The notes under the pieces are model-generated. The model saw only the letters and a list, made by a program, of their open reading frames with translations, was not told the origin of the DNA and did no database searches. The translations under genes were made by a program, and so were the position numbers. Of a DNA stretch of 46,504 bases, positions 8,049-41,095 are shown one piece after another (positions within the stretch are counted from its first letter, which is position 1; each line of letters opens with the position of its first letter). Location of the stretch: assembly GCA_018303625.1 (NCBI GenBank), contig JAGVXV010000014.1, positions 1 through 46,504 of the forward strand, read 5' to 3'. Source of the stretch: Candidatus Woesearchaeota archaeon (GTDB lineage: Archaea > Nanobdellota > Nanobdellia > Woesearchaeales > GW2011-AR4).

Positions 8049-10304
8049 ATGGCTATAAATAAAACAAAATCAGAAGAAAAAAGACTGAAGATTCTTCTTG
8101 AAGTTGCAAAAGCGATAAATTCTCCCCTAAATATAAATAAAATACTAAATTATGTTGTTGATGCTGTGAAGCAGTTGGGCTATGATTTATGCTCCATACT
8201 TCTCAGGGAAGAAGAATTTATTGCGGTAAAAGCCGCTTATGGATTGCCTGAAAAACAAGTAGAGAAAATTAGGATTAAAATAGGGGAAGGTATAACGGGC
8301 AGTGTAGCCAAATCTAAAATGCCAGAAATGGTGAATGATGTAAGTAAAGATAAAAGGTACATTAAATTTGGGGAGCGTTTAATGACTGGTTCGGAACTTG
8401 CGGTTCCGATTATAGCAGGCAACGAACTTATAGGAGTTTTCAACTTGGAGGACAGGAGAAAAAATGCTTTTAATAATGAGGATTTGAAGATTGTAACTGC
8501 ATTAGCCGATCAATTGGCTATATCAATAAAGAATTCCAAATTGCTTTTTAGTTTAAGACATACAAATGAAAATCTTTCTATAATATACGAAACAGGGAAT
8601 ATCATTAATTCGACTTTAGTATTAGATAAAATTTTAAAAAATATATTAAATTTAGTAGTCAAGAAATTAAATTATGATAATTTTTCAATATTGCTATTAG
8701 AGGGGGATAAATTATTTCTGAAAGCAGCTTATAAACATCCAAAAAAGTATGATAAAAATTACTATATTAAGGTTAATGAAGGCGTTACAGGCTATGTTGC
8801 TAAAAACGGTAAACCGCAGATAATCAATGATGTAACAAAAGATAAAAGATACATCCCAGTAAGAAGAGGTATAAAATCCGAGATGGCAGTGCCTTTAAAA
8901 ATAGGAGATAATGTAAAGGGTGTTTTAAATGTAGAAAGTAAAAAATTAAACGCTTTTGATGAAAATGATTTATTTTTACTGTCAACCGTGGCTGATCAAG
9001 CAGCTATTGCTATCCAAAATGCTACTATAAACAAATTTTTAGCTCAATCAAACCAAAAATTGAAAATTATAAATGAAATAGGCAAAGTTATAAATTCAAG
9101 TTTGGATCTGGATAAAATTTTTAGTAGATTCCTGCATTTTATGTCTAAACAATTAAATTATGACTTTTGCGCTATACTCTTGATAGAAAACAATAGGTTG
9201 TATTCCAGGGCAGGAATAGGATTTACGCCGATGGAAATAGAAGATTATGGTGCTGATATTGGGGAAGGCATTTGTGGTATGGTAGCTAAAACCGGCAAAC
9301 CAGTTATAACCAATGATGTATCAAAAGTTCCATTTTATAAAAAACAATCTCTAAAAACTAAATCTGAAATTAGCGTTCCGTTAAAAGTCGAAGGCAAGGT
9401 TATTGGTGTGGTGAATGTCGAAAGTAGAGAATTAAATGCCTTTGATAAAGAAGATTTAGTATATTTATCCGCCCTTGCTGACCAAGTGACTGTTTCAATA
9501 AGAAATGCTCAGATGTATAATAAAATCAAAAATTTTAATATAGAACTGAAAGAAAAAGTTGATAGAGCGACTACAGAATTAAGAAGTGCTAATAAAGAAT
9601 TAGAAAGGCTAAATCAAGTAAAATCAGATTTTGTATCTACTGTATCTCATGAACTTAGGACACCAATAACAAGCATACAAGGTTACGTTTCATTGATTCA
9701 TGATGGAGATGCAGGCACAATAAATGAGGAACAGAAAGAATTTTTGGGAATTGTAAAAAGTGAGAGTCAAAGGTTAACAAGACTTATTAGTGATTTGCTG
9801 GATATTTCAAAGATAGAAGAAGGAAGAATGCAGTTAATTTTTGATGATTTTGACCTTTTGGATTTTCTGAATAATTATAAGAAAGAAATTCAAAACATGG
9901 CTCTATCTAAAGATATAAAAATTCACATTTCGATGCCCCTTAAACTGCCAATTATAAAGGCAGATTCTGATAAAATTAAACAAATATTCAATAATCTTAT
10001 TGGCAATGCAATTAAATTTTCAGATAAAAATACAACTTTGGAAATAGTTGTAAAGGAAAATTCTAATAATATTCAGATTGAGATTACAGATCAAGGAATC
10101 GGCATAGCGAAAAAATATTTGAAAAAAATTTTTGAGAAATTCCAGCAAGTTGACAATAAAATGACTAGGAAAGTCGGGGGAACTGGTTTGGGATTAGCTA
10201 TTATAAAGCATTTAATTGAAGCTCATGGCGGCCACATTCGTGTAAAATCAAAATTGGGTGAAGGAAGTACTTTTAGTTTTACTATAAGTAAGAATTTGAA
10301 ATGA
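8049..10304 (+). CDS. Histidine kinase with three GAF domains, HisKA and HATPase_c
   Basis: Three GAF repeats (GEGITGSVAKS..., NEGVTGYVAKNGKP..., GEGICGMVAKTGKP...), H-box SHELRTPITSIQGY, N-box NLIGNAIKFSD, G-boxes DQGIGIA and GGTGLGLAI. Confidence 0.94.
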   Translation: MAINKTKSEEKRLKILLEVAKAINSPLNINKILNYVVDAVKQLGYDLCSILLREEEFIAVKAAYGLPEKQVEKIRIKIGEGITGSVAKSKMPEMVNDVSKDKRYIKFGERLMTGSELAVPIIAGNELIGVFNLEDRRKNAFNNEDLKIVTALADQLAISIKNSKLLFSLRHTNENLSIIYETGNIINSTLVLDKILKNILNLVVKKLNYDNFSILLLEGDKLFLKAAYKHPKKYDKNYYIKVNEGVTGYVAKNGKPQIINDVTKDKRYIPVRRGIKSEMAVPLKIGDNVKGVLNVESKKLNAFDENDLFLLSTVADQAAIAIQNATINKFLAQSNQKLKIINEIGKVINSSLDLDKIFSRFLHFMSKQLNYDFCAILLIENNRLYSRAGIGFTPMEIEDYGADIGEGICGMVAKTGKPVITNDVSKVPFYKKQSLKTKSEISVPLKVEGKVIGVVNVESRELNAFDKEDLVYLSALADQVTVSIRNAQMYNKIKNFNIELKEKVDRATTELRSANKELERLNQVKSDFVSTVSHELRTPITSIQGYVSLIHDGDAGTINEEQKEFLGIVKSESQRLTRLISDLLDISKIEEGRMQLIFDDFDLLDFLNNYKKEIQNMALSKDIKIHISMPLKLPIIKADSDKIKQIFNNLIGNAIKFSDKNTTLEIVVKENSNNIQIEITDQGIGIAKKYLKKIFEKFQQVDNKMTRKVGGTGLGLAIIKHLIEAHGGHIRVKSKLGEGSTFSFTISKNLK

Positions 10305-31355: not shown

Positions 31356-31937
31356 TTAATGCTGATTTTTATTGCAGATTGCAATTTCCTTTTCAGTCAG
31401 AATTATATCAACAGGAACATCATGCCTTTCTTCAGGAATTTTTTCTATCAGCTGGAAATCATAAGCCAATCCGATTTTTAGGGTTTCTTTCCTTATTGTC
31501 TTGAGAAACCTATCGTAATAGCCGTAGCCATATCCAATCCTATGGCCGTTCTTGTCAAAAGCAATGCCCGGAACAATGACAATATCCAGCTTGTCAGGGT
31601 TAAACTCTCTTTGGTAAGATTCTTTAGGCTCCAAAATGCCGAAGGTTTTTGGCTTCAATTCATTGAAATTTTTCAATTCGGAAATGTAAAGCTTTAGGTC
31701 GCCTTTAATGGTGTAAGGCACAATTATTGTCTTTTCCTTATTGCTTAATAATTCCTTTATGATTTTCTGCGTATCCACTTCATTATTAGTTGAAACATAG
31801 AACATTATGTTTTTCGCATTTTTAAATTCCTTTAAGGAAAATAATTTTTGCTTAATTTTATTGCTTTTTTCCTGCATCTCCTTTTTCTGCAGCTTATTCC
31901 TTTTTTCAAAGATTTGGGATTTTAGTGAGAGTTTCAT
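31356..31937 (-). CDS. 5-formyltetrahydrofolate cyclo-ligase
   Basis: IVPGIAFDKNGHRIGYGYGYYDRFL is the family signature. Confidence 0.93.
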   Translation of the reverse strand: MKLSLKSQIFEKRNKLQKKEMQEKSNKIKQKLFSLKEFKNAKNIMFYVSTNNEVDTQKIIKELLSNKEKTIIVPYTIKGDLKLYISELKNFNELKPKTFGILEPKESYQREFNPDKLDIVIVPGIAFDKNGHRIGYGYGYYDRFLKTIRKETLKIGLAYDFQLIEKIPEERHDVPVDIILTEKEIAICNKNQH

Positions 31938-31968
31938 AAGAAAAATAAATCAAGTGCCATATAAAAAC

Positions 31969-32385
31969 TTATTGCTGCCCATTATTTTGTTGCGCCAGCG
32001 AGACCAAAGAAAAGCAGAAGTCAAGCGTCCTTCTAGCCAATTCACGATTAGAGGATGTTCCTACATCACGCAAAATTATCTTGTACTGGCGCTTGTAAGT
32101 TTCTCCGTCTTTTGGACTTGCGTAAACCTCGATTAACTTACCTACTTTATGGGATATGTCTGAAATCTGTTCATCATCAACAGGCCCATCTTCGCCGTTT
32201 AAATTGATAGGTGCTACCCTGGAACTGCCAGATACTTTCCTTCCCAATGATGATATTACATCACGCATAGCACCGTACATGCCTATAATAGTATCAAGAT
32301 ACTCTGGCCAGTTATATAAATTAACATCAGGTACTACTATTTGCCCTTCATATTCCTCTACCATAATAATTTTAAGTCGTACCAA
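31969..32385 (-). CDS. Hypothetical protein
   Basis: 138-aa ORF; start probably the internal ATG (MVEEYEG) because of TATA-like TTTTTAAATT placement. Confidence 0.45.
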   Translation of the reverse strand: MVRLKIIMVEEYEGQIVVPDVNLYNWPEYLDTIIGMYGAMRDVISSLGRKVSGSSRVAPINLNGEDGPVDDEQISDISHKVGKLIEVYASPKDGETYKRQYKIILRDVGTSSNRELARRTLDFCFSLVSLAQQNNGQQ

Positions 32386-32412
32386 TCAATTTAAAAATTT
32401 TATGGAAAATAA

Positions 32413-32505
32413 ATTATTCAGGACCTAATCAAGTTTGCTGATTCAATTGTCTGGAATTATACGAATGAGAATGTTTTGAGGAAGGGGAAGAAGGTTGTGG
32501 TTTGA
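32413..32505 (+). pseudogene. Orphan C-terminal-like gene fragment
   Basis: Open frame without start: IIQDLIKFADSIVWNYTNENVLRKGKKVVV*. Confidence 0.3.
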
Positions 32506-32671
32506 TATTTACAATAAAAAATATGTTTGATTTCTCAAAGAGGAGGAATTCTAATATTCATTTCGTAGTCTGAAGAGTTTCCTGAAAGTTTTTAAGATTT
32601 GCTGTGTTATTTATTTGCAATATTGAAAATATTTATTATGTTACCACTTTAAAGAAGATACAAATAGAAAG

Positions 32672-32690
32672 CTTTATAAATATAGGAATA
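32672..32690 (+). promoter_or_regulatory. TATA-box promoter of the helicase-methyltransferase operon
   Basis: AAGCTTTATAAATATAGG roughly 40 bp upstream of the ATG at 32725. Confidence 0.55.
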
Positions 32691-32724
32691 ACAATTCAAC
32701 AATCAGTAACCTTTTTGGGGAACT

Positions 32725-35700
32725 ATGGATGGGAGTGTAACATTAGATGGAAGAGTAGAAAATGGTACAAGATTTCTTAGTAGATGTGTCCATCAAATTT
32801 ATGATAAAGGATATTTACATGATATTATAGCAGAATCGTATAGACTTCTTATGGCACAGTATCAGAAAAACTATCCTGAAGAATTTCCAACTCGAAAAGG
32901 AGAAATAGAAAGAGAATATGTTAAGGCATTAGAAATATTACCTTTTTTTAGGGATTCAAAACAAGAACCAAGAGAAATTCCTGCCTATGATTCTACCACT
33001 TTTCTGTTGGAATGGGCAAACTCAATAAATAGAGCTTATACTGTATTAACAGATGGTAAAAATGGAGATGTTATAGATATACTTTATGATCCAAGAACTG
33101 TATTTGCCCATACTTCAATATTGATGAGAGATTTTAAGGATAAGCTTCCGTATTTAAGCAGAACTTTGCAAGCGCTTGATACAAGTGCAAAAAGATTTCT
33201 TGTAAATAACCTCCCTGAATTGCGGGAAGAAAAAAAAGCCCAAAGAATACAAGAGTGGCATAAATCTCTTCCGAAAGATTTAGCTGAGATTGTTTATGAA
33301 GGAGATTTAGCTGACATTGCATATTTGGGTTCAAAAGCTATGGCTGATGCCTTTGCAACATATTTTTCCCATCATTGCCTCTCAGGCAGTTTAGGTAAAA
33401 CCTTCTTTGGATCAGGAAATTTTTTCGTTCCATCATATGAATTAGAACAGATTGATGTTCATCATCTCTATTCATATGTCCGAATCTCACAAAGAGTTCT
33501 CTCTAAGTACATCTTAAAAAAAGCAAGAGAACAAGGACTTACAACCAAAGATAAAGAGTTATGGGAAGGTATACTTGCCGAGCTAAATGAAACCCATAGA
33601 ATAAGCAAAGAGTCAGAAACACGAAAAGCAGTGCGTCCTTTATTAGACCTTCTTCACAATGAATTGGTTTCATATGTTAAGAGCCTTTACTCAACTGATA
33701 CATCGGTATTAAGACCAGATATTATTCCCTTTGTATCTCAATTAGATTCCTTGCATATGTTAAGGTCTGAAAAGCCGAATGACACAAAAGACAGAGCGAT
33801 TTTTGCGGACGAAATTGGTACTGGAAAGACGCTTTCTGCAATATTAGCAGATGCGCTGTATAGGAAAGAAGGTCAGGTAAGGAAAACTCTTGTTATCTGC
33901 CGTAATCAAATGAAAGGTGAATGGAAAGAAAGATTTTCAAAATATTTATCAGAAGAAACATTGCAAAAATATTATGGTTTTGGGGAAAATGGAAATAGAA
34001 TAAGAGTGGTATTTGGGTCACATTCAATGAGGGATATTGATGAGAATACCGTCGTTATCGCAAATTATGAAATGGTCAATCGTTCACTTAAATATATCAA
34101 AGATGAAGAAAAGACTCTTATTGAACTAGCCGAACAAGGTTTTGCAAATGGGCTCGATGAAATTTCAGAAGATGATGATATATTCAAAAAAATTGCTGCA
34201 GAATTTGACAATGCCAGAAATCAGTATAATGGAATGCAATTAGAAGATATTAAAAGAGAATTTTCCCATAGACCTAAATGTCTTGAATGGATTGGGGATG
34301 ATAAAGTAAAGGCTCTTTATCTTAAAACAGCAGAAACAGTTCTTAAAGATGAAAAACATACTGTTGAATCGCTCTTTAGCTATCAGGCTGATTATTTAAT
34401 TTTAGATGAAGCGCACGCCATTAAAAATCCTTCTCGAGCAAGAGCTCAAGGAGTTGAATTACTGGCTGAAAACATTCCAAGAATTGCATTATTGACAGGA
34501 ACTTTAATTCCAAACAGATACGAAGACATAACTGTGCCTCTAAGAATTGTTCGTGCTGAATATAAGCCTGAAACAATGGATATGAATGAATCTTTTTCTG
34601 TACTTGGGCCAAAAATCAGAAGGATAAGGCAAGCTCTTATCCCCTACCTAAGCAGAAGCATAAGAGAAGATGTATTGCCGAGAAACTATTTTATCACGCC
34701 TGATGAAGATAGGGTTGAAATTGTTGAGAGCGACGAGCTTACGCATGTTACTTATAGGGCAATTATTGAAAGCCCCTGGATGAGCCACACAAAAAAGATG
34801 AGATTAACAAGGCTTGCTACACTAAACCCTGCCATCGCAATAAATAAATTATTTGAAATGTCCAGAAAAGATACTGCTGCCACACATATTCTTGAGGATA
34901 TTATTGATAATTTGTCTATTGAAACCCTTGAACTTGTTGAAAGTGGAAGATATGTGCCGCCAAAATATAGAAGAATTGCCGAGAAAACTAAAAATTATGA
35001 TGGAAATACAGTAATATTTACTTCACACATTGAGGGTAATACAAGACCAATGAGCCAGCAAATTGTACCTTCAACAACACTAGTTGATTTTCTGTCAGGA
35101 AATACAGAAAGAGTTGTACTTCTCCATGATGGGAAAACACCAGACCATGCGGAAGAAGAAAAGTCTGAAAGAGCATACGTCTTGAGAAGATTTATTGGAG
35201 GAACTAATATAGATTTAGCTGCATCTTATGAAACCCTTGGAGAAAGCAAGGATCTTACTTCAGCCCGAATGGCCATTTCGACAGACTTGCATTTTGTTTT
35301 GCCTGATCAACCAATTGGCCGGGTAGACAGAATAACCCAATACCATGATGTAGAAGTTGCATATCTAACAGTTGCGGATAAAAGGCTTTCCGCTGGCACA
35401 AAATCTGGATTAACCATAGATGAAGCAGTTCTGCAGCTTGGAAGAGATAAAAAGTTAGTATCAAGCATTATTATTGATGGCAAACCACCTGGGGAGGAGG
35501 AAATGGAAGCATACAGGAGAATAATGGCTCAGAGTGGAGAAGCCCCTCAAACTTATACTCCTTTAAAAGATGGGCTTGATGTAGATGTAGATTCTCTTGA
35601 TGACAGTAAAAGACTTACCATATTTATTAGAAAAACAAGGGATGATAAAAAAGGCAGCGAAGAAAAAGTAAGGGATTTTGATGAAAGGCTTAGAATTGCT

Positions 35701-36423
35701 TATATCCAGGATCTTGTACTGGATCCCACCAGTTTTACTTACAAATCAAACCAAATGGTTGCCCAATTAATAGTGCCTTTGTTAGGGGGCAGTTTTGCGG
35801 ATGTTGGTGGAGGCCCGGCATCTTTGGCAATAGCAGGTGGAATAGAAACAAACTATGATAATATAGATGCTATAGATTGGAAAAAATCTTTAGAAGCAGT
35901 ACTATCTGAAAGAGGAATGCAGTTTCCTCATAATGTTAGATTTTATCATGCCTTCCTTTCAGATTTTGCAAAAAATTCTCAGGCACAATATTCTTTTGTT
36001 ACCTGCAATAACATGTTTCACTGGACAAATTTGCAAGAGCGGGAAAAGGTTTTTAGAGATATAAATGTTCTTTTGCCAGAAGGGGGAAAATTCATTCTTG
36101 GACTCCCAGGAGTTTACTCGGGTTTAGCCAAAGATAACCTTGAGTTATTGCTATTAAATGCAGGTTTTGAGCCTGATTTTATAGGGCAAGTATTAACTTT
36201 TCAAGACAGCTCATTCAACCAATTGGTGGCTATTAGCACAAAAGCAGGGCTTCCAGAAATAACACCATTAAAACCAAATGACTTGAAATTAAACGTAAAA
36301 TTAACTTATGGAAGAACAAGTAGAAGGCTACAGCATAGAATAATTAGCAACAGAAGAACAAAAAGGAACAGGGCTGAATCATTTAATATTGAAGGGATTG
36401 ATGTGAGGGAGATTTTAGCGTGA
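32725..36423 (+). CDS. SNF2-like helicase/ATPase fused to C-terminal SAM methyltransferase (1232 aa)
   Basis: Motif I FADEIGTGKT; II LILDEAHAIKN; III LLTGTLIPNRYED; VI-like QPIGRVDRITQ; C-terminal MTase FADVGGGPASLAIAGG and VTCNNMFHW...LLPEGGKFILGLPG. Confidence 0.85.
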   Translation: MDGSVTLDGRVENGTRFLSRCVHQIYDKGYLHDIIAESYRLLMAQYQKNYPEEFPTRKGEIEREYVKALEILPFFRDSKQEPREIPAYDSTTFLLEWANSINRAYTVLTDGKNGDVIDILYDPRTVFAHTSILMRDFKDKLPYLSRTLQALDTSAKRFLVNNLPELREEKKAQRIQEWHKSLPKDLAEIVYEGDLADIAYLGSKAMADAFATYFSHHCLSGSLGKTFFGSGNFFVPSYELEQIDVHHLYSYVRISQRVLSKYILKKAREQGLTTKDKELWEGILAELNETHRISKESETRKAVRPLLDLLHNELVSYVKSLYSTDTSVLRPDIIPFVSQLDSLHMLRSEKPNDTKDRAIFADEIGTGKTLSAILADALYRKEGQVRKTLVICRNQMKGEWKERFSKYLSEETLQKYYGFGENGNRIRVVFGSHSMRDIDENTVVIANYEMVNRSLKYIKDEEKTLIELAEQGFANGLDEISEDDDIFKKIAAEFDNARNQYNGMQLEDIKREFSHRPKCLEWIGDDKVKALYLKTAETVLKDEKHTVESLFSYQADYLILDEAHAIKNPSRARAQGVELLAENIPRIALLTGTLIPNRYEDITVPLRIVRAEYKPETMDMNESFSVLGPKIRRIRQALIPYLSRSIREDVLPRNYFITPDEDRVEIVESDELTHVTYRAIIESPWMSHTKKMRLTRLATLNPAIAINKLFEMSRKDTAATHILEDIIDNLSIETLELVESGRYVPPKYRRIAEKTKNYDGNTVIFTSHIEGNTRPMSQQIVPSTTLVDFLSGNTERVVLLHDGKTPDHAEEEKSERAYVLRRFIGGTNIDLAASYETLGESKDLTSARMAISTDLHFVLPDQPIGRVDRITQYHDVEVAYLTVADKRLSAGTKSGLTIDEAVLQLGRDKKLVSSIIIDGKPPGEEEMEAYRRIMAQSGEAPQTYTPLKDGLDVDVDSLDDSKRLTIFIRKTRDDKKGSEEKVRDFDERLRIAYIQDLVLDPTSFTYKSNQMVAQLIVPLLGGSFADVGGGPASLAIAGGIETNYDNIDAIDWKKSLEAVLSERGMQFPHNVRFYHAFLSDFAKNSQAQYSFVTCNNMFHWTNLQEREKVFRDINVLLPEGGKFILGLPGVYSGLAKDNLELLLLNAGFEPDFIGQVLTFQDSSFNQLVAISTKAGLPEITPLKPNDLKLNVKLTYGRTSRRLQHRIISNRRTKRNRAESFNIEGIDVREILA

Positions 36424-37586
36424 ACGCAAAAGCAAAAACTTTGGAAGAAGAACTCAGCAGGCAGTCAGATATGATTGACTTGGCGGATGCTTGGATGGAA
36501 AAGACTCAGGGAGTGATTGTACCTGGGGTGGTTATTGATAGAGAGGAGTATATTACAAGAATTCAAGAGTTGCCTGTTTGGGATAAAGTAAAAGACGATT
36601 TAGGTTTCTATACTTCCTTACTTAGTAAAACAAAAGTGAAAATTAATAAAAGTGAAGTAAAAGCTAATTTTGCCGCTCTTAAATTCGGTTTGACAATAGT
36701 TGATACTATTAATCATTTCTTATCCGATCCTGATTATAGTGTTGCAGAAAATCGACCTTTTGGATCACCTAGACCATTAAATAGAATATTAGAAAGTTAT
36801 CGCACCGATTTAAATAATGGATCAGGAGGTTATGAACTTAGAAGAGGCAATGCAATTAAGGTTTTCTATTTGCTCAATAATGGCATAATAACTGAACAAG
36901 ACTTACTTGATGTGGTTGGACTAAGAGAGAGATGGGAAGCATATCAAAAAACAACAGGCATTCCGAGAGAATATCGTGAACTTGCGAAGAAGATACTTAA
37001 CCATTTCCTTAATGATCCAGATTATTATCATGATAAACTACATTCTTTGGGTACCCCTAAGACACTTAAAAATATATTGGATAGTTATAGAACTGATCTT
37101 GAAAATGGAGAAGGTGGATATCAAAATAATAAAGGGGAATGTCAAAGGATATACGGCGCCATCAAGCAAGGTTTAATTACCGAGGAAGAGTTACTAGATT
37201 CTATAGGATTACGTGAGCAATGGGAAGCATATCAAAAAACAACAGGCATTCCGAGAGAATATCGAAGAAAAGCAAAAAAAGTTTTAGAACATTTTCTTTC
37301 AAATGTAAGTTATTGTACTGGAGATAGGTGGAATAAACAAGATTCGCCTAGGAAATTGAAATCAGTTTTAGAAAAGTATAGAACTCATATTAATAATGTA
37401 AGAGGAAGTTTTCACAATTCAAAAGGTGAAGCACATAAAGTGTATGACGCGATAAAAAGAGGGCTACTTAAAGCAGATGATTTACTCAAATCCATAGGCT
37501 TATACGAAGCATGGCAAGATTATCGAAAGACGACAACAGGTAATCCGTTCGTTTTTGATCCGAAAAAATACCAAAAAGCGGCATAA
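36420..37586 (+). CDS. Repeat-module protein A (shared N-terminal domain plus three ~96-aa modules)
   Basis: GTG start overlaps helicase stop (GTGA); modules around GSPRPLNRILESYRTDLNNGSGGYE...; C-terminal NPFVFDPKKYQKAA. Confidence 0.75.
   Translation: MNAKAKTLEEELSRQSDMIDLADAWMEKTQGVIVPGVVIDREEYITRIQELPVWDKVKDDLGFYTSLLSKTKVKINKSEVKANFAALKFGLTIVDTINHFLSDPDYSVAENRPFGSPRPLNRILESYRTDLNNGSGGYELRRGNAIKVFYLLNNGIITEQDLLDVVGLRERWEAYQKTTGIPREYRELAKKILNHFLNDPDYYHDKLHSLGTPKTLKNILDSYRTDLENGEGGYQNNKGECQRIYGAIKQGLITEEELLDSIGLREQWEAYQKTTGIPREYRRKAKKVLEHFLSNVSYCTGDRWNKQDSPRKLKSVLEKYRTHINNVRGSFHNSKGEAHKVYDAIKRGLLKADDLLKSIGLYEAWQDYRKTTTGNPFVFDPKKYQKAA
36932..37264 (+). repeat. Two identical 45-bp copies inside protein A gene, 288 bp apart
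   Basis: ATGGGAAGCATATCAAAAAACAACAGGCATTCCGAGAGAATATCG at 36932-36976 and 37220-37264. Confidence 0.9.
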
Positions 37587-37588
37587 AA

Positions 37589-38776
37589 ATGGCAAATGCT
37601 ACAAGAAGGTCACTGGAAGAAGAACTAAGCCAGCAAGCAGATTTGATTGAGTTAGCTGATGCTTGGATGGAGAAGACTGGGGGAGAGATTGTACCAGGGA
37701 TGGTTATTGATAGAGAGGGATTTTTGGAAAGAATAGTTCAATTGCCAATTTGGAGGAAAATTGAAGGAGATATAGGCACTTATGTAAGGTTAATAGGATT
37801 GAAACAAATTAAGAAACTTGGAACTAGACAAAATGATAAAAATGCATATTTATTGCAAAATGCCTTAACAGTTGAATATGTGTTAAGACATTTCTTAAAG
37901 GATCCTGATTATTGTAGTGATAAGCATAATCCTTTTGGTTCTCCAAAAAAACTTTCAACAGTACTTGAATCTTATTCGGTTTCATTAAATGGGGAAGAAG
38001 GAGGATTTAATTCTAGGAAAGGGGATTGTACAAAAATTTATAAGACAATTCGCCGTAGAAAATTGACATATGATGAATTACTTGGAGTCGTTGGGTTAAG
38101 TGAATTATGGATGGAGCACGAGAAAAGCGTTGGAATGCCAAGAGAAATTAGGAAACTTGCTAAAAAAACAATTGAGCATTTCTTGCAAGATCCTGACTAT
38201 AGTAAAGGAGCCCCTAGTGGAGGATATACATTTGGATCTCCAAAAAGGCTTAAATTGGTACTTAGAGATTATTCAATTTCTTTAAATAATGGAGAAGGGG
38301 GTTATAAAACAAGAAGAGGGGATTGTAACAAAATACAAAAATTAATAGAAAGAGGCAGATTAACTGAGCAGCAACTTCTAGATGCTATAGGTCTTGCAAA
38401 AAAGTGGAGTTATTATGAAAATAGTACAGGTATTTCTAAGGATTATAGGACAGTGGCTTATAAAACACTAGTGCATTTTTTGATGAATCCGCATTATTGT
38501 GGCTATATAAAGGATACACGTAACCCAGTTGGTGCTCCTAAAAAACTTTTAACTGTTCTGAGAGATTATTCAACATCTTTTAATAGGGGTAAAGGTAGAT
38601 TCAAGAGTAAAAAGGGAGATTGCTATATGATTCACGGCGCTATCAATGAAAAAAAGATGACCGGTGAACAGTTACTTACAAGAATAGGCCTCAAACAAGC
38701 TTGGAATGATTATCAAAAATCATTTGCTCAAAATCCCTTTGTTTTCAATCCAAAGAAATACAAAATTGCAGCTTAG
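37589..38776 (+). CDS. Repeat-module protein B, tandem paralogue of protein A
   Basis: Same N-terminus (LEEELSQQADLIELADAWMEKT), three modules, and C-terminal NPFVFNPKKYKIAA. Confidence 0.75.
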   Translation: MANATRRSLEEELSQQADLIELADAWMEKTGGEIVPGMVIDREGFLERIVQLPIWRKIEGDIGTYVRLIGLKQIKKLGTRQNDKNAYLLQNALTVEYVLRHFLKDPDYCSDKHNPFGSPKKLSTVLESYSVSLNGEEGGFNSRKGDCTKIYKTIRRRKLTYDELLGVVGLSELWMEHEKSVGMPREIRKLAKKTIEHFLQDPDYSKGAPSGGYTFGSPKRLKLVLRDYSISLNNGEGGYKTRRGDCNKIQKLIERGRLTEQQLLDAIGLAKKWSYYENSTGISKDYRTVAYKTLVHFLMNPHYCGYIKDTRNPVGAPKKLLTVLRDYSTSFNRGKGRFKSKKGDCYMIHGAINEKKMTGEQLLTRIGLKQAWNDYQKSFAQNPFVFNPKKYKIAA

Positions 38777-38815
38777 ATTAACTACCCAATAGTTTATAAA
38801 AAGAATAGTATTACT

Positions 38816-39760
38816 ATGATTAAAATGGATCTTGACCAAGAATTAAAAAAACAAGCCGTAATAGTAGATTTAATTAGAGCATTAAAGGTTGATGAACAAA
38901 GAAAGCTGCACATAAGCGGTGTTCTTTATAATAGAGATATTGATGAACTTGTTAATCAAAAGGATATAGAGGCAATAAAAGCCAAATTGAGTGGCAGGAG
39001 AGTTGTACTAAATCCGCGGCAAAAAGAACTAGCAATTGTTGTTGAGCATTTAGCAGATTTCGATGATTCTATAGGCTCATGGATAACAAACCTCTCTAAA
39101 GGAGACACAGTTTACGCAATTGAGCATGTCCTTATGGGCTATGATGCGAATACTCGTAAATTTGTAGCGGAAGGTACTGGATCACATTTAGTAGGTAAAC
39201 TTAGTTTTCCAGAATTGCAAGTATTGAAAAGATACAGTAAATTTGCAGCAGACATTGAAGGATTGTATAAAAGTGTTAGAGGAAAATTAAATTTCAGTAA
39301 AGATGCCAATACTGTTGCTAAATTTTTAGTAGGAAAATCACTTTATTTGCCCGTATATCTTGCTAAAGGAAAAAGGCCAAAAGATACTTATGTAACCTTG
39401 ATTGAGACAGAAGGTTTTGAAACAGACGAGACTGTAACCAGGCAGAGATATTGCATGCTTGCATCCCCAGGTGAATTGAGGACAATGCCATTTAGGGGTC
39501 TGAATTTACTGAATGTTGGAACGCTTGAAGCAGAAACACCATCATGTGTGATGATCAATGCAATAGCTTTTGGAGACCAATTTATCGAAGGTCCTGGAAG
39601 AGTTGGAAATGTATTAAATGCCACAAGATTAGAAGGTAAAGTTCTTAATAAGGACATAGAAATTATTGGCAATACGGCAAAAAGCGGATATATGCCTGGA
39701 CCTGCTCAATATAGTACAGGAAGATACAGGATGCAAGAACCATTAAAAGCAAACAATTAG
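38816..39760 (+). CDS. Hypothetical protein C of the helicase-methyltransferase locus
   Basis: 314-aa ORF; N-terminus (LDQELKKQAVIVDLIRALKVDEQRKLHISGVLYNRD) resembles A/B N-termini; own TATA-like TTTATAAAAAG upstream. Confidence 0.65.
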   Translation: MIKMDLDQELKKQAVIVDLIRALKVDEQRKLHISGVLYNRDIDELVNQKDIEAIKAKLSGRRVVLNPRQKELAIVVEHLADFDDSIGSWITNLSKGDTVYAIEHVLMGYDANTRKFVAEGTGSHLVGKLSFPELQVLKRYSKFAADIEGLYKSVRGKLNFSKDANTVAKFLVGKSLYLPVYLAKGKRPKDTYVTLIETEGFETDETVTRQRYCMLASPGELRTMPFRGLNLLNVGTLEAETPSCVMINAIAFGDQFIEGPGRVGNVLNATRLEGKVLNKDIEIIGNTAKSGYMPGPAQYSTGRYRMQEPLKANN

Positions 39761-39787
39761 TAATATCTTCTTAAGTTATGGTATCAT

Positions 39788-41095
39788 TCACAACACTCTC
39801 ACATGCCTTACCCTTTTCTCTATAAGCTCTTTTGTTCCAATATCTTTTCTGTGAAAGACATTTCCTTTGATGCTTTTTGTTGCCTCTTCAGCTATTTTTT
39901 CAGCTTCTTCCAGATTGTTTCCTATTCCCAATAATGCAATCGCCCTTGAGCCTGTCATGTACAATGCATCATCTTTTTCCTCAACAGCAGCGTAATAAAG
40001 CCTTGCTTCTTTAGGAATATTTTCAATTGTTATTTTTTCCTTTACAGGCTTTTCCGGATATCCTTTTGGGACAATGTATTTGCATACAGTTGCCTTTTTC
40101 GCAAACTCAACCTTAAAGCGGCTTAATTCCTGCGTTATCATAGCCTGGCAGACAGAAACAAAATCCGTTTTTAATAAAGGCAGAACATTCATCGCTTCAG
40201 GATCTCCAAACCTTGCGTTGTATTCAAGCAATTTAACCCCGTCCCTTGTCAGAATAAAGCCGCCGTACATAATGCCATTGTAGTATTCTCCTGTCTCCAA
40301 ATAGATTGACTGCGCAACCTGCCTCGTTATTTTTAATGCCTCGTCAACATGCGCTTTTTTCAGAAAAGGCAGCAGATGGCTTTCGCATGAATAAGAGCCC
40401 ATGCCTCCCGTATTGCTTCCTTTGTCATCTTCAAAAGCCCTTTTATGGTCCTGCACCGGAGGCGTTGCAATAACAGTTTTTCCATCAGTTAAGCATTGCA
40501 AAGAAAATTCCTCCCCATCAAGCTTTTCCTCGGCAATAACCGCAGGATGCGTTTTTAAGACTTCACTGCAATATTTTAAAGCCTCTTCCTTTGTCTGGAA
40601 ATGGTCGCCCTGGACTTTAACTCCTTTGCCCGCAGTCAGGCCATCGGGCTTTATAACAACAGCCTCAATTCCATTTAAAAAATTTTTAATTTCACCGGAA
40701 TTTTCTTTTGTAAAAACCCTGAATTTTGGGTTTCCGCCAATATGGTACTTTTCCAATAAATTCCTTGCAAAGCTCTTGCTTGTCTCCAATTGCGCCAGTG
40801 TTTTATTCGGGCCTATGCTCGGAATGCTTATTTTCTTCAGCTCATCGACAACGCCCTCATTTAAAGGGTCCTCAGGGCCGATGAAAGCGAAATCAATGCT
40901 GTTTTCTTCCGCGAAGTTTGTTATTTTCCCAAGCTCATTGTAATTTCCAATTGCAGTATATTCGCTTAATTTCGCAATGCCGGGGTTTTTTGACTTCATG
41001 AAGGAAAAAAGCTCCACTAAAGTATTTTTCTTCAGCGCTTCTGCTATTGCATGCTCCCTTGCGCCATGCCCCACTAATAAAACGCGAATCATCAA
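39788..41095 (-). CDS. purD: Phosphoribosylamine-glycine ligase PurD
   Basis: VLLVGHGAREHAIAEAL, FIGPEDPLNEGVVDELK, VIKPDGLTAGKGVKV, GGMGSYS, LEYNARFGDPEAMNVLPLL. Confidence 0.97.
   Translation of the reverse strand: MMIRVLLVGHGAREHAIAEALKKNTLVELFSFMKSKNPGIAKLSEYTAIGNYNELGKITNFAEENSIDFAFIGPEDPLNEGVVDELKKISIPSIGPNKTLAQLETSKSFARNLLEKYHIGGNPKFRVFTKENSGEIKNFLNGIEAVVIKPDGLTAGKGVKVQGDHFQTKEEALKYCSEVLKTHPAVIAEEKLDGEEFSLQCLTDGKTVIATPPVQDHKRAFEDDKGSNTGGMGSYSCESHLLPFLKKAHVDEALKITRQVAQSIYLETGEYYNGIMYGGFILTRDGVKLLEYNARFGDPEAMNVLPLLKTDFVSVCQAMITQELSRFKVEFAKKATVCKYIVPKGYPEKPVKEKITIENIPKEARLYYAAVEEKDDALYMTGSRAIALLGIGNNLEEAEKIAEEATKSIKGNVFHRKDIGTKELIEKRVRHVRVL

What the first reader, a model, noticed from the sequence alone, without database searches (positions are those of the whole stretch)
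32672..39760. Candidate undescribed system: SNF2-like ATPase fused to a SAM methyltransferase, coupled to repeat-module proteins
One operon-like block inside the folate/purine gene region. The 1232-aa protein has a ~350-aa unknown N-terminus, SNF2-type motifs (FADEIGTGKT, LILDEAHAIKN, LLTGTLIPN, QPIGRVDRITQ) and a C-terminal class I methyltransferase (FADVGGGPASLAIAGG, NNMFHW). The methyltransferase lacks an obvious DPPY/NPPY adenine-methylase motif, so the target may not be DNA. Its stop overlaps the GTG of a repeat protein (GTGA), which is followed 3 bp later by a paralogue, then by a fourth protein. ATPase + modifier + variable repeat proteins suggests a defence, remodelling or modification system; that function is inference.
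Basis: partly seen in the sequence, partly recalled or inferred. Interest (0 to 1): 0.85.

Follow-up and report, generated by a model that had tools for sequence, protein, structure and literature searches.

The report
SNF2-methyltransferase, repeat-protein, glycosylase-fold gene cassette
A tiny archaeon carries a transplanted gene cassette that pairs a DNA motor fused to a methyltransferase with swappable repeat proteins and a relative of a DNA-repair glycosylase; the same kit recurs in other archaea and looks like an undescribed machine for modifying or attacking chosen DNA.

Summary
In detail: four co-directional, nearly touching genes at 32725-39760. It carries a methylpurine-DNA-glycosylase (AAG/MPG)-fold domain. 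A profile of its family retrieves human AAG from the PDB at E=3e-14, and a tree separates the family from ordinary AAGs with 100/99 support. Searching with it showed that the block is one instance of a recurrent cassette in Woesearchaeota and related archaea. I found 15 SNF2-methyltransferase loci in 14 genomes. All have adjacent repeat proteins, and 12 have the AAG-like gene next door. The window's own genome has a second, highly divergent copy. The repeat modules come in several unrelated kinds (about 100-aa units, HTH repeats, HNH_repeat) that swap between related motors. In the window the cassette splits purD from 5-FTHF cyclo-ligase, which are adjacent in at least seven relatives, so it was inserted. 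The AAG catalytic Glu is kept here but lost in most relatives. The best reading is a horizontally acquired, sequence-targeted DNA modification or interference system. The motor, the repeat modules and the insertion are well supported. Chemistry and biological role are inference. No known defence or modification system matches.

The parts
32671..32680 (+). TATA-like element (GCTTTATAAA) 45 bp upstream of the first ATG; candidate archaeal promoter of the block
   Evidence: Direct reading; the pattern is not enriched over chance in the window (12 found, 9.6 expected), so only its position supports it
32725..36423 (+). SNF2-methyltransferase fusion, 1232 aa: N-terminal ~350 aa of unknown fold, SNF2 core aa ~355-910 with intact motifs I, II, III, VI, class I methyltransferase-like domain aa ~1009-1145
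36420..37586 (+). Repeat protein A, 388 aa, three ~96-aa units (about 36717-37004, 37005-37292, 37293-37583); start codon overlaps the stop of the previous gene
37589..38776 (+). Repeat protein B, 395 aa, three ~96-aa units (about 37892-38179, 38180-38476, 38477-38773); paralogue of A (45% identical)
   Evidence: AlphaFold2 model pLDDT 85.8, three repeated helix/hairpin/helix units
38816..39760 (+). AAG/MPG-fold protein, 314 aa: helical N-terminus, then the glycosylase-like domain at aa ~160-307 (about 39293-39736); AAG catalytic Glu kept (IETEGF), His/Tyr pocket region shortened
31969..32385 (-). 138-aa ORF of unknown function inside the inserted stretch, opposite strand; membership uncertain
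   Evidence: no Pfam match; no match in relatives' loci
31938..39787 (.). Whole stretch that separates 5-FTHF cyclo-ligase (31356-31937) from purD (39788-41095); these two genes abut in relatives

Best explanation
The block is a horizontally acquired cassette that encodes a sequence-targeted, ATP-driven DNA-modifying or DNA-interfering complex. The repeat proteins are interchangeable DNA-recognition subunits: each unit has a conserved linker and a variable, basic block that contacts DNA. They load the SNF2 motor on chosen sequences. The motor remodels or tracks along DNA. The AAG-fold protein flips out or senses a base; in Glu-retaining members such as this one it may also excise it. The fused methyltransferase marks the exposed base or the cell's own DNA. 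The role I judge most likely is discrimination against foreign DNA (restriction-modification-like defence). Shown here: the gene set, its recurrence, the domain folds, the module exchange and the insertion. Inferred: DNA binding by the window's own type of repeat, complex formation, the chemistry and the defence role.
For: Recurrence: 15 SNF2-methyltransferase loci in 14 genomes, every one with adjacent internally repetitive proteins. Known DNA-binding repeats stand in the same slot in relatives: HTH_23, HNH_repeat 100.6 and 57.4 bits. Repeat type changes at least twice on the motor's tree. Linkers inside one protein are nearly identical (pS 0.14-0.31) while the adjoining variable blocks are saturated (pS 0.67-0.79, pN 0.47-0.56), which is the mark of cassette exchange. 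In G523's HTH repeats the recognition helix is the most variable of all 40 nine-residue windows. The variable block is more basic than the linker. AAG-fold partner. Motor motifs are intact in nearly all members. Insertion into purD/cyclo-ligase with empty sites in relatives; only 2 of 36 family genomes carry the window type; two highly divergent copies in one genome.
Against: No functional data exist for any member. The methyltransferase lacks a DNA amino-methyltransferase motif, and motif I is degenerate in G147 and G013. The AAG catalytic Glu is replaced in 9 of 13 AAG-like members. G572 has no AAG-like gene beside it and G190 has no SNF2 gene. The model of the window's repeat protein matches no known DNA-binding fold. 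PADLOC gives only generic helicase or HTH matches. There is no clear defence-island context.
Confidence: 0.5

Rival explanations
1. A targeted epigenetic (gene-control) modification machine, not a defence system. The repeat proteins direct the SNF2-methyltransferase to chromosomal loci, and the AAG-fold protein (and in some loci a 2OG oxygenase) reads or erases the mark, as DNMT5, JBP2 or TET/TDG do in eukaryotes.
For: SNF2 fused to or paired with a DNA modifier is a known route to ATP-dependent modification (DNMT5, PMC7862722). 2OG-oxygenase-like genes sit in the G336 and G517 cassettes (26% identical, E=1e-14). Loss of the glycosylase Glu fits a reader role.
Against: Sporadic distribution, insertion between metabolic genes and fast exchange of recognition modules are more typical of conflict systems than of housekeeping gene control.
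Confidence: 0.22
2. A DNA base hypermodification pathway: the AAG-fold protein and the methyltransferase (with a 2OG oxygenase in some loci) build an unusual base at targeted sites.
For: An enzyme set of methyltransferase, 2OG oxygenase and altered glycosylase fold. metK (SAM synthetase) flanks two loci.
Against: The 2OG oxygenase is in only 2 of 15 loci and metK beside only 2. No known hypermodification transferase or kinase is present. Motif I of the methyltransferase is degenerate in two members.
Confidence: 0.12
3. An alkylation-damage repair unit: an AAG glycosylase helped by a SNF2 remodeler.
For: AAG fold with catalytic Glu in the window type. Rad54-like archaeal SNF2 is the closest solved ATPase.
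Against: The system AAGs are a separate clade from ordinary AAGs (100/99), lack the His/Tyr pocket segment and mostly lack the Glu. Genomes such as G190 hold an ordinary AAG as well. Repair does not call for variable, exchanged recognition repeats.
Confidence: 0.06
4. Part of a selfish mobile element: repeat DNA-binding proteins (HNH_repeat is named from homing endonucleases) that direct integration or maintenance of the cassette itself.
For: Clear insertion. HNH_repeat modules.
Against: No nuclease, integrase or transposase in the cassettes. No flanking direct repeats were seen around the window block.
Confidence: 0.1

Closest known systems
Type I restriction-modification (HsdR/HsdM/HsdS)
   Same: SF2 ATPase motor, methyltransferase and a separate modular specificity subunit whose recognition parts are exchanged
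   Different: No nuclease domain found; SNF2-type motor fused to a UbiE-like methyltransferase without the NPPY/DPPY motif; specificity by tandem repeats; AAG-fold protein added
DISARM, BREX, Zorya, Dpd (SNF2 proteins DrmD, BrxHI, ZorD, DpdE)
   Same: SNF2-family ATPase; profiles of these proteins match the helicase part
   Different: None of their other defining genes are present; matches cover only the helicase core
MADS (methylation-associated defence system)
   Same: mad2 profile matches the methyltransferase part (E=2e-5 to 4e-9); mad1 profile matches the HTH repeats
   Different: Only generic MTase and HTH domains are shared; no other MADS component was matched
Fungal DNMT5 (DNA methyltransferase fused to SNF2)
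   Same: A methyltransferase and a SNF2 ATPase in one chain; in DNMT5 ATP hydrolysis drives methylation (PMC7862722)
   Different: DNMT5 is a C5-cytosine DNMT at the N-terminus with a RING finger; here an unrelated class I methyltransferase lies at the C-terminus
Brig1 and related antiviral DNA glycosylases (PMC11078745, PMC13160076)
   Same: Precedent that a DNA glycosylase can be a defence effector
   Different: Those papers mention neither SNF2 nor AAG-type (3-methyladenine) glycosylases in the searched text; here several partner genes surround the AAG-fold protein
Alkyladenine DNA glycosylase (AAG/MPG, PF02245)
   Same: Same fold family
   Different: Separate clade, shortened pocket region, catalytic Glu often lost, linked to SNF2-methyltransferase genes

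Membership tests
SNF2 ATPase family | Helicase motifs I, II, III and VI of the SF2/SNF2 core | tested here: met
   PF00176 69.8 bits (cut-off 24.9); GTGKT, DEAH, TGT, QxxxRxxRxxQ intact
Class I SAM-dependent methyltransferase | Methyltransferase profile and Gly-rich motif I | tested here: met
   Window: DVGGGPASL; Methyltransf_25 24.0 bits, cut-off 27, so slightly short by itself; relatives pass (C9 44.8, G336 55.2, G572 48.2 bits). Motif degenerate in G147 and G013
DNA adenine/cytosine-N4 methyltransferase | [DNS]PP[YFW] catalytic motif | tested here: not met
   The corresponding position reads CNNMFHW; no DPPY/NPPY in the domain
AAG/MPG fold family | Significant profile or fold match to PF02245/AAG | tested here: met
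   Family profile to human AAG E=2.6e-14; PF02245 above cut-off in C9, G336, G486, G147, G265; top PDB fold hit is AAG with prob 0.99, though E=0.016 and the model is weak. Window protein alone is below the Pfam cut-off
Active AAG glycosylase | Catalytic Glu125 and pocket His136/Tyr159 (human numbering, from general knowledge) | tested here: inconclusive
   Glu kept in the window, G244, G382 and G336; replaced in nine others; His136 segment deleted and Tyr159 changed in all
Type I restriction-modification | HsdR nuclease-translocase, N6-adenine HsdM, HsdS with two TRDs | tested here: not met
   No nuclease, no NPPY methyltransferase and no HsdS match in Pfam or PADLOC
DISARM / BREX / Zorya / Dpd | Co-occurring core genes (drmABC; brxABC-pglZ; zorABCD; dpd set) | tested here: not met
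   None among the cassette genes; only helicase-core matches
MADS | mad1-mad8 gene set | tested here: not met
   Only partial mad1 and mad2 domain matches
HNH_repeat / HTH repeat DNA-binding proteins | Profile match in the repeat proteins | tested here: inconclusive
   Met for relatives; the window's own ~100-aa repeats match no family and no solved or viral fold
Antiviral defence system | Demonstrated reduction of virus or plasmid propagation | not testable with these tools
   Needs an experiment

The most novel reading that the evidence does not exclude
A new class of DNA-targeting system. Tandem repeat modules of several unrelated folds act as an exchangeable recognition code for a SNF2-methyltransferase. 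A glycosylase fold, stripped of its catalytic Glu in most lineages, has become a base-flipping subunit that presents or senses a base for the motor-linked methyltransferase.
Probability: 0.2. Interest if true: 0.92.

Novelty: categorically new. Interest (0 to 1): 0.77.

Why it matters
If right, this is a previously unnamed multi-gene DNA-targeting system in host-dependent archaea whose defences are little known. It would show a DNA-repair glycosylase fold turned into a non-repair component, and a specificity layer that can be swapped between unrelated repeat families. The HTH-repeat versions suggest a modular protein-DNA recognition code that could be tested directly with binding assays.

Tried and rejected
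Viral origin: six scans of IMG/VR with SNF2-methyltransferase, repeat and AAG queries found no relative, and tblastn against phages gave only weak SNF2 or ordinary AAG matches. Plasmid hits were ordinary 3-methyladenine glycosylases. Known defence systems: PADLOC and NCBIfam gave partial helicase matches only. Native part of the purine/folate cluster: rejected by the empty sites. tRNA-gene or structured-RNA association: none in the window. Target-site duplication or terminal repeats: none convincing. AlphaFold model of the AAG-like protein: too weak to stand alone (pLDDT 54). Fold search of the repeat protein: no match. In the C9 HTH repeats the recognition helix is not unusually variable (rank 12 of 40), so the G523 pattern is not general. 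The first C9 figure used a misplaced window and is superseded. Papers combining SNF2, glycosylase, methyltransferase and archaea: none describes this set.
Full report
CHECK OF THE OBSERVATION. Four + strand ORFs lie at 32725-36423 (1232 aa), 36420-37586 (388 aa, GTG overlapping the TGA stop), 37589-38776 (395 aa, 2 bp later) and 38816-39760 (314 aa). Pfam finds the SNF2 domain at 69.8 bits (cut-off 24.9) and class I methyltransferase profiles at aa 1009-1145 just under their cut-offs. The two middle proteins are truly repetitive (self-alignment z 93 and 84; flanking genes below 0), with three ~96-aa units each.

WHAT THE FOURTH GENE IS. The 314-aa protein has a weak Pfam match to methylpurine-DNA glycosylase (PF02245, E=6e-4). 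A profile made from it and its G244 homologue finds further relatives at E=1e-20, and several of these pass the Pfam cut-off by themselves (45.3, 43.4, 36.5, 60.4 and 88.8 bits). A profile of 11 members retrieves human AAG from the PDB at E=2.6e-14. A weak AlphaFold model (pLDDT 54) still has human AAG as top fold hit with probability 0.99, though at E=0.016. In a tree, 12 cassette-linked members are split from 24 ordinary AAGs with 100/99.5 support. All cassette members lack the segment that carries AAG His136. The catalytic Glu (second Glu of ETEAY; human numbering from general knowledge) is kept in the window, G244, G382 and G336 members, is Asp in G265 and is Ala, Gly, Pro or Ser in the other eight.

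RECURRENCE. The same order (SNF2-methyltransferase, repeat proteins, AAG-like gene) occurs in G244 (also JACPMT010000054.1, Woesearchaeota) and UBA10204, with one and three repeat proteins respectively. The window's own genome has a second cassette on contig C9: AAG-like, HTH-repeat protein and 783-aa SNF2-methyltransferase, following metK. Profile searches added G523, G190 (AAG-like and HTH only), G486, G147, G132, G013, G571, G336, G265, G517, G572 and G624. Altogether there are 15 SNF2-methyltransferase loci in 14 genomes. All have adjacent repeat proteins. Twelve have the AAG-like gene next door; G517 and G624 sit on contig ends, and G572 lacks it. In G265 the AAG-like gene is followed by a run of six small, mostly overlapping genes, several of them repeat proteins, leading into the SNF2-methyltransferase gene. 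Control: of nine cassette-type AAGs found from the AAG profile alone, eight have a SNF2-methyltransferase beside them, against none of eight ordinary AAG loci with long flanks (five checked by tblastn, three by ORF lists; Fisher about 4e-4 by hand, and one search gives 2e-4 with G265 included). The loci were partly ascertained by the genes tested, so this figure is indicative. The carrier fraction is small: 2 of 36 family genomes for the window type, and about 8 of 378 class genomes for strong AAG-like matches.

THE REPEAT PROTEINS. In the slot of the window's ~100-aa repeats other loci have HTH repeats (HTH_23 and others) or HNH_repeat modules (100.6 and 57.4 bits). On the motor tree the repeat type changes at least twice (for example G571 HTH inside an HNH_repeat-type clade), so modules are exchanged. 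In the G244 protein, linkers of repeats 1-3 are nearly identical (pS 0.14-0.31, pN 0.05-0.12), whereas the adjoining variable blocks are saturated at both classes of site (pS 0.67-0.79, pN 0.47-0.56). That points to exchange or conversion at the linkers, not to simple drift. Variable blocks are mostly basic, linkers neutral or acidic. In G523 the HTH recognition helix is the most variable 9-residue window of 40; in C9 it is rank 12, so this is not general. The window repeat protein B model is good (pLDDT 85.8, pTM 0.76) but matches no solved or viral structure. DNA binding by the window type is therefore inferred from position, charge and equivalence to the other types.

THE METHYLTRANSFERASE. 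Motif I is GGGPA in the window type, ASGPF in C9 and G523, GGGNG in G336, canonical in G572, G265 and G624, SGP-type in G486, G132 and G571, TGP-type in G517, and DAAAQ (degenerate) in G147 and G013. No DPPY/NPPY motif exists. The substrate is unknown. In at least two members the domain may have no catalytic role.

INSERTION. In relatives G304, G282, G199, G306, G298, G290 and G281, purD and 5-FTHF cyclo-ligase overlap or are separated by only a few bases on one strand. In the window 7.85 kb separates them: the four-gene block on the opposite strand plus a 138-aa ORF. The rest of the neighbourhood (purL, purH, folD, glyA, purD, purF) is an ordinary purine/folate cluster. No terminal repeats were found. 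The G244 copy also lies beside purD, but that contig may be a contaminant of its bin, because the bin holds two purD genes and the one on this contig is the closer to the window's.

MECHANISM. I propose that repeat proteins select DNA sequences, the SNF2 motor acts there with ATP, the AAG-fold subunit flips or senses a base (and may excise it where the Glu is kept), and the methyltransferase marks DNA. Horizontal acquisition, sporadic presence, two highly divergent copies in one genome and module exchange make a defence role the likeliest, but gene control by base modification remains a serious rival. In two loci (G336, G517) a related 2OG-oxygenase-like gene joins the set, which would suit a write/erase scheme.

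COMPARISON. Defining features of type I restriction-modification, DISARM, BREX, Zorya, Dpd and MADS were tested and not met. DNMT5 (SNF2 plus DNA methyltransferase in one chain, PMC7862722) and the antiviral glycosylase Brig1 (PMC11078745) are functional analogies only. JBP2 and TET/TDG are named from general knowledge.

LIMITS. Sampling is confined to the window's phylum plus pattern scans of GTDB representatives and IMG/VR; MAG contigs are short; there is no experimental evidence. 'Categorically new' refers to the gene system as a set; each domain belongs to a known fold except possibly the window's own repeat unit.

Noticed in passing
L019:3646-7844 (own genome, contig C9): A second, only ~21% identical cassette in the same genome, directly downstream of metK (SAM synthetase).
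   Followed up: yes
L008:8593-9765 and L019:8003-9220: metK lies beside two of the cassettes that are otherwise unlinked; could be chance or SAM supply.
   Followed up: partly
L020:4945-5661 and L149:7092-7736: Related 2OG-Fe(II)-oxygenase-like genes (26% identical, E=1e-14) inside two cassettes.
   Followed up: partly
window 31969-32385 (-): 138-aa ORF without Pfam match, inside the insertion but on the opposite strand to the block.
   Followed up: partly
L008 (G244:C50): This contig may not belong to its genome bin: the bin has two purD genes and the one here is closer to the window's.
   Followed up: partly
window 8049-10304 (+): Hybrid sensor histidine kinase with three GAF domains, HisKA and HATPase in a small archaeal genome.
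   Followed up: no
L055:8465-9853 (G190): Cassette remnant: AAG-like and HTH genes with no SNF2-methyltransferase in the genome, next to what looks like a transposase gene.
   Followed up: partly
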